Shown: one piece after another, positions 2,812-38,703 of the stretch
Layout of the letters: every line of letters begins with the position of its first letter
How positions within the stretch are numbered: position 1 is the first letter of the stretch
From: Seiridium cupressi
Lineage: Eukaryota; Ascomycota; Sordariomycetes; Amphisphaeriales; Sporocadaceae
NCBI GenBank assembly: GCA_036674765.1
Contig: JARVKI010000032.1
Location: forward strand, 1 to 64,000
Direction: 5' to 3'
Length of the DNA stretch: 64,000 bases
The notes under the pieces: generated by a model
Databases searched by the model: none
What the model was told of the DNA's origin: nothing
Seen by the model: only the letters and a program-made list of their open reading frames with translations
Translations under genes and position numbers: made by a program

Positions 2812-4473
2812 TCATGCAAAGTCGCCGATATCAAAGAAGGTGCTCGTGTACGGTGGCTGTAGAAAGTCCTCCAGATCCAGATCCAGCCAGGGAGACGTTG
2901 TAGTAGTAGTGACAACATTTTCCGTACCCTCCAGGCCCGAAATACTTCTCAGCAGAGATAATTCTTTGTTCTTGTTCTCCATACAAACACGCACCAAGAG
3001 TTGTGCAGTATTGAGTGCTTCCGCTGTCAGTTTGGACTGGAAACGATGATTGATGTCGCGAAGGACTTCCATGGCGGCACCAAGGTTGGCCAAACTGTGA
3101 GTAGTATCAATGGAGAGTAGTACACAAATCCACTGGAATGTCGTGCTCAGGGTGTTTCACCAAGGGAGCTGCTGTGTGGCAAGTCGACGAGCAGCGGGAA
3201 TCGCGGACACGCCAACTTCAAGTATGGCCTGGATCTCGGATTCGTTAGTCCCTGGCGGAAGAAGACGTAGACGGCGGTATGTAGCAAAGCAGAGTTCGGC
3301 TTTCGTAAGAGTCACAAAATCGTGATCACTGGGAGCTTCCACCAGTTCTCCAAGTATTCGAGAGAGATCTGCGCATGTAACCGCCGCGGTTCTGGAGACG
3401 ACACTCGCGAGTGAGGCAAGCTGGAGCGTAAAGTCGTTGGGTCCAGCTCTAATATGATCACAAGGCACAGAACCAATATTGATAGTAGCCCGACCATAGT
3501 CAAAAGCGATAACAGAATGCAAAGTTCGGGCAACAGAGACGGTTCGCTCACGTAGCTCGGTGTCCTTCATCCGATCATCTGGTACCTCGCCTGCTAAAGA
3601 TGTAGATTCCATGTCCCGGTGTAAGCCCATGACCTCGATAAGATTGATAGTTACGACTGAGCTCAGGTGCGCCACATACGGCCGAGTCGTGGCACGAACA
3701 TAGAGTGTTCGGAGTATCCATCCGGCGGCAAGGTCTAAACAGGGAAAGCGACTGACAACTGGATCTTGTAGAACAGTCTTCGTCTGGAGCACAATCTCTG
3801 CCTCCGAATGCTCGGACAATTGATTTGAGAATAAAGATCCGAGCGCCGCGACTCCGCCGACAATGGCTTCGTATACCAAATCCTGCGTCTCGCCGTGCCA
3901 ATGCTGATAACTCCGATGGTATAGTGCGTCCGAGTCCAGGAAGCCAAATACTGGGTGAATCACGGAGATGTAGGTATCAATGAGAGCTCTCGCTTGTTCC
4001 CAGACGAGCATCTCCTGTAGACGAGGCTGCAATGAGCTCTCCGGCTCTTTCCGGACACCTAGGTGATAAGCAAAAGCGTGTAGTCGTGGAGGATTGGCCA
4101 ATCCTAGTCGCAGCCCGAGTGACCGAGCCTGGGCGGCTGACGAGTGTCGCTCAATGAAGCGACTTTTAGCTGGTGCTACGTATCCTGTATGTTGACACGC
4201 AGCGTCAAGGCCGTCTACAGGACTGGTCTGGGGAGCTTGTGCCCTGACAGTAGAGGGTTGTTGAGGGGCAAACGGGTTTATATTAGGCCGACCAGCAGCC
4301 GTACCTGACGCAATACTATCTTGGTATTGACAGTCATATCCATATGGGGAGCAAGTGCCACGAGGCAGAAAATGATCGCATTTGCGTTTGCTCCGGCGGC
4401 AGGGGATGCATGACCTATTGGATCTTGGGCGTTGCTGCCTTCGAGTCGGGATTTGGCTGTCGTGGGTATTCAT
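2812..4473 (-). CDS. Zn2Cys6 transcription factor with altered zinc cluster
   Basis: Two exons (4473-3161 and 3094-2812) with a 66-nt GT-AG intron give 531 residues. The N terminus holds a fungal binuclear zinc cluster at residues 22-48 preceded by basic residues. The middle (about 120-330) resembles the fungal-specific regulatory domain. The spacing CX2CX6CX5-X-X2CX6C is preserved, but the fourth ligand position is Arg38 (codon CGT at 4362-4360) rather than Cys, leaving five cysteines: C22, C25, C32, C41 and C48. A single T-to-C transition from TGT would explain it. The rest of the frame is open, so the protein may be made but bind DNA poorly. It lies 418 bp beyond the 3' end of the PKS on the same strand, typical of a pathway regulator. 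Confidence 0.85.
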
Positions 4474-4891
4474 TGGTTGGAAACGTGTATAATCGGGGAT
4501 GTTATCCAGGCATTGTTAGTACCGCAACCGACAATAAACCGCCGGTATCAAGAGAAATTACAATTATATGGATGAATTGCTGTTTCATTCAAGACCGAAG
4601 GTGGCCGTGTCTTACCAAGGTTTGAAACGGCCCGGGTATGCACCGCTGCAACGCGTTCCGCTAGTGTAGGTCTTCAGCGTGCCCACACTGGCCTGCAACA
4701 GTGGCTTGCCGCGGAACCCTTAGCCCCGTACTTTAGCTGCACGCGACGCATCGTCAAAGGACCATCAAAACTCGGACGATCATTTCGAAACGGTAATAGT
4801 GTTGCTGATACTCTATTGAAAGCTCAATGAAAGAGAATATCTAAATCCAAGTAACTAACTCCTGAACGCCGTTATTGCTGAACTCCTTCTA
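4474..4891. other. Intergenic region between TF and PKS
   Basis: This 418-bp stretch holds the promoter of the regulator at 2812-4473 and the 3' flank of the PKS, both on the minus strand. I see no gene, repeat or structured RNA in it. Confidence 0.6.
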
Positions 4892-36408: not shown

Positions 36409-37028
36409 ACTCCCTATCGAGCAACATGCTAGAATTGAAAGACACCTTGAGAACTGTTCACTTAAGCTTAGAATGTATGTGAGTAATTTCCCAAACCCCA
36501 TGCATGAGCCTAGATTCTGTATATCACTTATGTGGAGTAGCTAGTTGCATTGTAGGTCCGTTTTCTTCTCTTACAGACGCCCGAAGCTCGCTATGTATTC
36601 CTTTTTACTCTTCTGGGTCGCTCTTCTATTTTCGGAGATTACCGCTTATGCTTATATCCAAGGCTCCGTGCTGTAGCTCCGGCATACCTAGGGCGCAGCC
36701 ACGTCAGCTTAGCGTTCAAGTCCGCGGTGTGCTGCAACTTGTAGGCAGATCCTTAATCTCACCATTAGTATTACGGATGTGACACGAAGTCCTGTCTATT
36801 GCCAGGTGTGAAAAAGCGGGTATTGTAACAGGAATTGTATATCCGCTCTATGGACGAGCCTCTCCAATGCATGCGTTGCTCGTCCGTCGGCGATCTTCTC
36901 ATAGTAATCGATAGAAATGCAAGGTTATATTCTACCCCTGATTGACATATTACGATTCGCAGTTCTCGACTACTCGTTTTACTCGACATTTCTGGAAAGT
37001 TCCAACATCCTACTTGATACACAACAAA
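36409..37028. other. Intergenic region upstream of the halogenase
   Basis: This 620-bp stretch carries the halogenase promoter. No gene or repeat is seen. Confidence 0.5.
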
Positions 37029-38703
37029 ATGGCTATTCCCGAGGAATGCACCGTGTTGGTGGTGGGAGGTGGCCCAGGAGGCTCCTACGCCGCGACGGTG
37101 CTGGCCCGTGAGGGTATTGACACAGTACTTTTGGAGGCGGAGAGAATGCCCCGATACCACGTTGGGGAGACCATGCTACCTACAATTCGTCACTATCTCC
37201 GATTCATTGATCTAGAACCCGAGTTTGACAAGCACGGATTTACCAAGTCGGTAGGAGCAGCCTTCAAATTCAATCAGGCAGGCCCAATAGGATGTAAGTT
37301 TAAGCAAACAAGCCAAGTCTATTGGAAACACGTATGACTTTGCTAAAATTCTTCCCAAGTCACGAACTTTCTCCTTGGCGGGTCGGACAACTTGGCCTGG
37401 AATGTTGTCCGCTCCGAAGGAGATGAATTGCTCTTTCGCCACGCAGGGAAGAGCGGCGCCAAGGCCTTTGACGGTGTGACAGTCACATCGATTGATTTTG
37501 CTCCTTCAAATGGTGCAAATGGATCCGCAGTTCATAGTCCCGGAAAGCCTATATCTGCCTCTTGGTTCAAGAAAGAGGACGGCACCAGTGGTGTTATCAA
37601 CTTCAGTTACATAATCGACGCAACCGGACGCGCTGGCCTGCTCAGTACAAAATATTTGAAGAACCGTCACTACAATAGCGCGATCAACAAGTCGGTCAGT
37701 TGGGCATATTTCAAGAATGCTAGCAAATACGGAGAAGGTACAGAACAGGCGGACGTTCCATTGTATGAAGGAATGAGAGGTATGGATGTCATGCTCCGAG
37801 TTGTGACATGTCATGAGTCGTTTCTGATCATATATGCACAGATGAAACTGGCTGGACCTGGCTTGTCCCACTTCACGATGGCACATCTTCCGTTGGCATT
37901 ATCAGGGACTATGCACTCGCTCAGGAGAAGATCAAGGCTGCTGGGTCCGAATGGGAGTATTGCAAGGAATCTCTCGAACAAGCACCCACGGTATCGAGCC
38001 TTTTAGCAGATGCCAAAGCAGTGACCGGTGTCAAGACTGACACAAACTACTCATACTACGCCAGCTCTTACGCATTCCCAAACGCTAGAATTATCGGCGA
38101 TGCCGGTTGCTTTACTGACATATTCTTCTCATCCGGTGTCCACCTTGCAATTACTCACGCGCTTTCGGCAGCCACTAGCATCGCGGCAAGCATCCGCGGC
38201 GATGTTGACGAAGTAGTTGCAGCGCAATGGCACTCCAGCAAGATTGCCGAAGGCTATTCGCGCTTTTTACTCTTAGTATTGAGCGCGTACAAACAGATCC
38301 GGCCTAGTGAGAGCTTTAATGCCGGTGACTTCAGCCAGGAAGGCTTTGATCGAGAATTCGGTATCTTCCAGTCAGGTTAGTGATTCTATCTAATCCACAT
38401 ACTAACCCCATCCCGTCTCTATATTTACTCGTTGATTTAGTTACCGGAGGATCGCAGAACGACACCGGAAAGATTACGCAGGAGGAGTTTTCCCACACTT
38501 ACGAATTCTTGATCAAAGCTTTCAAGGTTCACTTCGATCATACAGATGGACTCACCAAGAAGGACGTAGATGCACTCCAAGCATTCCGGAGTCATCAGGG
38601 AAGCCACATTATGAACATCAACAGTTTTACCTCCGAGGTCATTGATGGATTGGTACCTAGCCTCAAGAAGGGTGGTTTAACTCTCGTACCAGCGCAGACC
38701 TAG
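37029..38703 (+). CDS. Flavin-dependent halogenase
   Basis: Four exons (37029-37293, 37360-37779, 37842-38375, 38441-38703) join in phase to 493 residues. FAD-binding GGGPGGSYAA starts at residue 13. RMPRYHVGETMLPTIRHYL and HGFTKSVGAAFKF follow, with Lys73 in the position of the catalytic lysine of fungal phenolic halogenases. The halogenase signature WxWxIP is present as W233-T-W-L-V-P238, and it appears only after the second intron is removed. GDAGCFTDIFFSSGVHLA completes the family pattern. Relatives include radicicol and griseofulvin halogenases and the chaetoviridin halogenase CazI. It would use FADH2, O2 and chloride to chlorinate an electron-rich aromatic or azaphilone carbon. A partner flavin reductase is not in the window, as is usual for fungi. 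This gene most likely marks the right end of the core cluster. Confidence 0.95.

What the first reader, a model, noticed from the sequence alone, without database searches (positions are those of the whole stretch)
2812..38703. Halogenase plus three acyltransferases around a lone azaphilone-type NR-PKS
Seen directly: one NR-PKS (SAT-KS-MAT-PT-ACP-CMeT-R), an AzaH/MrPigN-type FAD monooxygenase, a BBE-like oxidase, two reductases, a flavin halogenase and three acyltransferases of two families. Known chlorinated azaphilone clusters such as the chaetoviridin one use a highly reducing PKS to supply a side chain; none is in this window. Inference: the product is a chlorinated, acylated azaphilone built on a short starter, with acyl tails from CoA donors or a remote PKS. 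The gene combination may be undescribed.
Basis: partly seen in the sequence, partly recalled or inferred. Interest (0 to 1): 0.85.

Follow-up and report, generated by a model that had tools for sequence, protein, structure and literature searches.

The report
Azaphilone cluster with lysine-less halogenase
A cypress-canker fungus carries an ordinary-looking gene cluster for an azaphilone pigment, but its "halogenase" has lost the lysine that this kind of enzyme needs to attach chlorine, so the product should not be assumed to be chlorinated.

Summary
The twelve-gene cluster is real (2812-38703). The NR-PKS is a group VII azaphilone-type enzyme in a Sordariomycete clade with Monosporascus, Xylaria and Lasiosphaeria. 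A lone NR-PKS is not odd: the Monascus and Hypoxylon hfaza1 clusters also lack an HR-PKS. Two of the "three acyltransferases" fall in the family of the Hypoxylon acetylase/deacetylase pair, so three acyl tails need not follow. The halogenase has Ser at position 74, where RadH has its essential Lys and 119 of 119 other listed homologues have Lys; the S. cardinale orthologue also shows Ser. It departs at 21 of 111 near-invariant columns (control median 1, maximum 7 apart from S. cardinale), while PKS (9 of 511), AT2 (0 of 42) and AT3 (0 of 70) do not stand out. Its frame is open, so it is either newly dead or kept for another job. The one other halogenase match found in this genome carries stops and lacks a detectable N-terminal part. 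Best reading: a Monascus/Hypoxylon-like, acetyl-primed, acylated azaphilone, probably unchlorinated. Reactions and product are inferred.

The parts
2812..4473 (-). TF1, Zn2Cys6 regulator with five of the usual six Zn-cluster cysteines
   Evidence: Zn_clus 24.8 bits, cut-off 21; frame and cysteines
4892..12991 (-). NR-PKS SAT-KS-MAT-(PT)-ACP-CMeT-R; 2671 aa after an inferred intron at 12245-12328
   Evidence: Pfam; motifs; intron in gene finder and as the gap against P0001; open after splicing
13949..16163 (-). TF2, Zn2Cys6 regulator with Fungal_trans domain; first exon uncertain
   Evidence: Zn_clus 37 bits, Fungal_trans 62 bits
16973..17927 (-). SDR, candidate side-chain ketoreductase
   Evidence: adh_short 138 bits
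18987..21585 (+). MFS transporter; small 5' exons uncertain
   Evidence: MFS_1 93 bits; frames
22709..24366 (+). BBE-type FAD oxidase
   Evidence: FAD_binding_4 and BBE; PDB
25036..26055 (-). MDR (zinc-alcohol-dehydrogenase-like) reductase
   Evidence: ADH_N, ADH_zinc_N
28991..30417 (+). AT1, TRI101-like O-acyltransferase with HVVAD
   Evidence: TRI-like_N and Transferase; sequence
31331..32808 (+). Dearomatising FAD monooxygenase; Arg207 and Phe240 stand for TropB Arg206 and Tyr239
   Evidence: TropB 426, AfoD 379, SorC 326 bits with alignments
33160..34548 (-). AT2, acyltransferase of the acetylase/deacetylase family, HWRID
   Evidence: PapA_C; 0 of 42 conserved columns changed
35035..36408 (+). 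AT3, paralogue of AT2, HWRTD; 59% identical to P0250 'acetylase/deacetylase' of H. rubiginosum
   Evidence: 0 of 70 conserved columns changed
37029..38703 (+). Flavin halogenase homologue, 493 aa, Ser74 in place of the catalytic Lys

Best explanation
This is a biosynthetic cluster of Seiridium cupressi for an acylated azaphilone of the Monascus/Hypoxylon (mrPig/hfaza) kind. Inferred pathway: an acetyl-primed NR-PKS makes a methylated benzaldehyde and releases it reductively; the SDR reduces the side-chain ketone; the monooxygenase dearomatises the ring and the pyranoquinone closes; AT1 puts an acyl group from an outside pool on the new hydroxyl; AT2 and AT3 act as an acetylating and deacetylating pair; the MDR and BBE enzymes adjust oxidation level. 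The halogenase homologue no longer halogenates, because the lysine that carries the active chlorine is a serine; it is either a recently dead enzyme or one kept for other flavin chemistry. Shown: gene content, domains, motifs, the Lys loss and its rarity. Supported but indirect: linkage of homologues in other fungi. Inferred: every reaction and the product.
For: Gene set. PKS clade and full-length group VII homologues. PKS and AT homologues share contig lengths in several fungi. AT3 59% identical to a protein named acetylase/deacetylase; published pair in hfaza2. Lone NR-PKS azaphilone clusters published. Lys74 in 119 of 119 other listed homologues, Ser here and in S. cardinale; 21 of 111 conserved columns changed against control median 1; RadH K74A abolishes activity, K73A does not. 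Pro of F-x-x-P-x-x-S-x-G is Ile and Ile of WxWxIP is Val. PKS, AT2, AT3 normal in the same test.
Against: No metabolite or expression data. RadH Asp325 and Phe328 are kept (Asp321, Phe324), and Lys73 is kept, so residual activity cannot be ruled out. The open frame argues against a plainly dead gene. A remote or off-contig HR-PKS or orsellinic-type PKS could feed the pathway. TF1 lacks a Zn-cluster Cys, so the cluster may be poorly switched on.
Confidence: 0.68

Rival explanations
1. One reading: the halogenase is active and the product is a chlorinated, acylated azaphilone on a short starter (falconensin- or luteusin-like).
For: Intact frame, FAD motif, Asp321 and Phe324 kept, Lys73 next door; sister halogenase of Coniella has Lys74 and shares a contig length with an AT2 homologue.
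Against: Ser74 where K74A kills RadH and K73A does not; 21 of 111 conserved columns changed; S. cardinale has Asn73 and Ser74.
Confidence: 0.15
2. The NR-PKS is primed by, or the core acylated from, a separately encoded HR-PKS or orsellinic-type PKS, as in chaetoviridin or in Hypoxylon's two-locus system.
For: Many PKS places elsewhere: 30 DH/PT and 22 SAT matches, several per gene; cluster near a contig end; two-locus cooperation is published. The SAT matches the CazM SAT at 2e-41, but that is the one SAT structure found.
Against: Full-length tree puts the PKS apart from the CazM-like row, on the side of the A. niger row I presume to be AzaA, whose HR-PKS supplies only the acyl group. Lone NR-PKS clusters exist.
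Confidence: 0.25
3. It is a tropolone-type rather than an azaphilone cluster.
For: The monooxygenase scores higher with TropB (426 bits) than with AfoD (379); tropolone synthases share the PKS domain order (recalled).
Against: Phe at TropB position 239, as reported for AzaH and AfoD, not TropB's Tyr; no TropC-like dioxygenase among the gene models of the cluster; AT2/AT3 and BBE genes fit azaphilones. AzaH is not among the PDB matches, so the score comparison is uneven.
Confidence: 0.06

Closest known systems
Monascus pigment cluster (mrPig / MpPKS5)
   Same: Lone group VII NR-PKS, ketoreductase, monooxygenase, O-acyltransferase, acetyltransferase/deacetylase pair (PMC8596599 parts 1-2, PMC7898651 passages)
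   Different: Monascus has its own fatty acid synthase and, as far as those texts say, no halogenase; here no FAS and a halogenase homologue
Hypoxylon fragiforme hfaza1 / hfaza2
   Same: hfaza1: seven genes with one NR-PKS, KR, monooxygenase, acyltransferase, dehydrogenase, transporter, regulator and no HR-PKS; hfaza2 holds the AT2/AT3-like pair and two FAD oxidoreductases
   Different: Hypoxylon splits the functions over two loci, with a second NR-PKS and a P450 in hfaza2; here one locus plus a halogenase homologue; PKS 49% identical to Hfaza1A
Chaetoviridin (caz) and sclerotiorin (Psc_Aza) clusters
   Same: Group VII NR-PKS, monooxygenase, acyltransferase, flavin halogenase gene
   Different: They have a clustered HR-PKS and a halogenase taken as active; here neither. 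CazI and Psc_Aza_H sequences were not compared
RadH, fungal phenol halogenase (PDB 8gu0)
   Same: 459 bits over residues 1-434; FAD motif, Asp321, Phe324
   Different: Ser74 for the essential Lys74; Pro326 is Ile; Ile of WxWxIP is Val

Membership tests
Azaphilone biosynthetic cluster | Group VII NR-PKS SAT-KS-AT-PT-ACP-(CMeT)-R | tested here: met
   Pfam domains and homologues; PT by position only
Azaphilone biosynthetic cluster | Dearomatising FAD monooxygenase of the AzaH/AfoD family | tested here: met
   TropB/AfoD/SorC family; Phe at 239, Arg at 206
Azaphilone biosynthetic cluster | Ketoreductase | tested here: inconclusive
   An SDR is present; orthology to MrPigC or Hfaza1F not compared
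Azaphilone biosynthetic cluster | Pyranoquinone product | not testable with these tools
   No metabolite data
Functional fungal flavin-dependent halogenase (RadH type) | Catalytic Lys (RadH K74) | tested here: not met
   Ser74, codon TCG; Lys in 119 of 119 other listed homologues
Functional fungal flavin-dependent halogenase (RadH type) | Asp325 and Phe328 of RadH | tested here: met
   Asp321 and Phe324 in the alignment
Functional fungal flavin-dependent halogenase (RadH type) | WxWxIP and F-x-x-P-x-x-S-x-G motifs | tested here: not met
   WTWLVP and FTDIFFSSG (motifs)
Acetylase/deacetylase pair (MrPigM/O, Hfaza2B/2C) | Two paralogous genes of this family in an azaphilone cluster | tested here: met
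   AT2/AT3, 28% identical; AT3 59% to P0250. Direct MrPigM/O comparison not made
Chaetoviridin-type cluster | Clustered HR-PKS | tested here: not met
   No DH match in the window; sequence before contig base 1 not available

The most novel reading that the evidence does not exclude
A flavin halogenase that lost its active-chlorine-carrying lysine before two Seiridium species split, yet was kept as an open gene in an azaphilone cluster, now does a different flavin reaction (hydroxylation or oxidation) in that pathway: a naturally repurposed halogenase.
Probability: 0.35. Interest if true: 0.7.

Novelty: new variant of a known kind. Interest (0 to 1): 0.45.

Why it matters
Cluster mining readily calls a product chlorinated when a halogenase gene is present. 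Here one residue, checked against 119 homologues and a published mutant, says otherwise. If the gene is still used, it would be a natural case of a halogenase turned to another reaction. PMC9569342 (passages) puts chlorinated azaphilones in four subfamilies and names no cluster for falconensins or luteusins; the Coniella, Apodospora and Thozetella halogenases, which keep Lys74 and share contig lengths with azaphilone-type genes, are better leads for short-chain chlorinated azaphilones than this locus.

Tried and rejected
Rejected: that the lack of an HR-PKS makes the cluster unusual (mrPig and hfaza1 lack one). Rejected as main reading: a tropolone cluster. Not settled: a remote PKS partner. 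Two other group VII relatives, on C40 and C45, were found but not tied to this cluster. Stereochemistry of the monooxygenase: Phe239 is reported to favour S, but AzaH is an exception (PMC10789314 passages), so I make no call. No structure was predicted: the spliced halogenase is not a plain translation of the window, so I did not hand it in.

Limits: homologue linkage rests on equal contig lengths in three protein tables, not on read neighbourhoods; for multi-megabase contigs this is weak. Those tables list the best 120 of 1578, 983 and 142 hits. The 119 halogenases are the 120 listed minus S. cardinale P0121. P0023 as AzaA and P0029 as MrPigA-type are my recollection, not tool labels. In the conserved-column test some controls exceed the window for the PKS (up to 23) and AT3 (up to 16), so those genes are ordinary, not unusually conserved.

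Full report
What is there. Pfam and PDB sequence matches confirm the families. The PKS is 2671 aa after an 84-bp intron at 12245-12328 that keeps the frame open. The public model P0001 shows one gap and two mismatches over 2643 positions against the unspliced frame. The SAT GLCTG, KS ACSSS, MAT GHSFG, ACP IDSLMG and reductase TGSTGSLG motifs are present.

Where it comes from. I therefore take the genome to be S. cupressi. The window starts at base 1 of the contig in AT-rich sequence (GC 0.19 over 1-2000), next to a short MFS piece.

What kind of cluster. In a tree of 48 PKSs, rooted at the midpoint for drawing, the window enzyme sits in a supported Sordariomycete clade with Monosporascus, Xylaria and Lasiosphaeria. 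It is apart from the Hfaza1A, Monascus and CazM-like rows and on the same side as an A. niger PKS that I presume to be AzaA. The monooxygenase is of the TropB/AfoD family, with Arg at TropB position 206 and Phe at 239; PMC10789314 (passages) puts Phe239 in AzaH and AfoD and Tyr239 in TropB. AT2 and AT3 are distant paralogues (28%). P0250, named acetylase/deacetylase, is 59% identical to AT3. Hypoxylon hfaza2 has two such genes, likened there to MrPigM (acetyltransferase) and MrPigO (deacetylase) (PMC7898651, passages). PKS and AT homologues carry equal contig lengths in Monosporascus (DL767_003164 and 003174), Xylaria venustula, Nemania serpens, two Lasiosphaeria, Thermothielavioides and Gaeumannomyces (RB595_006323 and 006329).

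Is the lone NR-PKS odd? No. The Monascus cluster uses a fatty acid synthase in place of an HR-PKS (PMC8596599, parts 1-2 of 4). hfaza1 has seven genes, none an HR-PKS. Side chains from clustered or unclustered FAS, HR-PKS or NR-PKS are all described (PMC8403587, passages).

The halogenase. It matches RadH over residues 1-434 at 1e-136, but residue 74 is Ser (codon TCG). Of the 120 listed homologues, 119 have Lys there and the S. cardinale orthologue P0121 has Ser; in P0121 that Ser lies just before a stretch where its gene model diverges, so it is weaker support. In RadH, K74A completely abolishes activity while K73A does not, and D325A also abolishes it (PMC5637929, passages); the window keeps Lys73 and the Asp. 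The window protein departs at 21 of 111 columns that are at least 97% conserved; leave-one-out controls (n = 120) have median 1 and maximum 7 apart from P0121 (19 of 79). The same test gives 9 of 511 for the PKS (77 homologues; control median 5, maximum 23), 0 of 42 for AT2 (104 homologues; median 0, maximum 4) and 0 of 70 for AT3 (15 homologues; median 1, maximum 16). I did not run it on the other cluster genes, for which no homologue set was fetched. In the halogenase tree of 42 rows the Seiridium pair has a stem of 0.9 and is sister to Coniella (98/94).

Dead or repurposed? The frame is intact with three ordinary introns. About 0.05 stops are expected per amino-acid change, so drift over the excess divergence (about 0.67 changes per site over 493 sites, my arithmetic) would give roughly 16 stops; none is seen. 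That argues for long retention under some constraint. Against this, the S. cardinale model lacks partners for window residues 85-118, 291-326 and 473-493, and the S. cardinale PKS model P0031 has no SAT or reductase domain listed, which suggests decay there, though gene-model error is possible.

Elsewhere in the genome. A search with the Apodospora halogenase found this gene's four exons and two pieces of one other match, on C37. That match carries stops, three opposite aligned residues and three in a gap that may be an intron, and no convincing N-terminal part was found. SAT (22 matches), DH/PT (30) and HTH_51 (6) searches show other PKS places, several matches per gene, so a remote partner cannot be excluded.

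Literature limits. PMC9569342 (passages) says that chlorinated azaphilones fall in four subfamilies and that only the chaetoviridin cluster had been elucidated, and adds its own sclerotiorin cluster. Searches for azaphilone with Seiridium, azaphilone cluster with halogenase and halogenases lacking the lysine showed no report of this cluster or of such an enzyme in their listings; only open-licence papers are searched, and most listed papers were not opened.

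Noticed in passing
window 1-2520: AT-rich contig start abutting a truncated MFS transporter piece (1709-2200), a likely relic at the cluster's edge.
   Followed up: partly
window 4300-4473 (-): TF1 has five of six Zn-cluster cysteines (positions 22, 25, 32, 41, 48), yet Pfam still recognises the domain; possible weakened regulator.
   Followed up: partly
G000 C37:304199-305282 (L059): A second halogenase-like sequence with stops and no detected N-terminal part; apparently broken.
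   Followed up: partly
P0020, P0123, P0323 (Apodospora peruviana); P0037, P0125 (S. cardinale): Apodospora has an azaphilone-type PKS, a Lys74 halogenase and an AT2 homologue with one contig length (6.45 Mb, so weak); S. cardinale PKS P0037 and halogenase P0125 group with them in both trees, hinting at a second, possibly active chlorinating cluster type.
   Followed up: partly
P0122, P0285 (Coniella lustricola); P0090, P0134 (Thozetella): Lys74 halogenases on contigs of the same length (83 and 90 kb) as an AT2 homologue or an azaphilone-type PKS; leads for short-chain chlorinated azaphilones.
   Followed up: partly
P0031, P0121 (Seiridium cardinale): Orthologues of the window PKS and halogenase look incomplete in the sister species; cluster may be decaying there, or the gene models are wrong.
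   Followed up: partly
G000 C40:273606 and C45:67084 (L044, L045): Two further group VII-like NR-PKS genes; C45 also has a DH-bearing PKS 32 kb away.
   Followed up: partly
window 39599-40688 and 42703-44156: Right of the cluster: a Fic-domain protein and a GH18 chitinase-like protein with a CBM1 domain.
   Followed up: no
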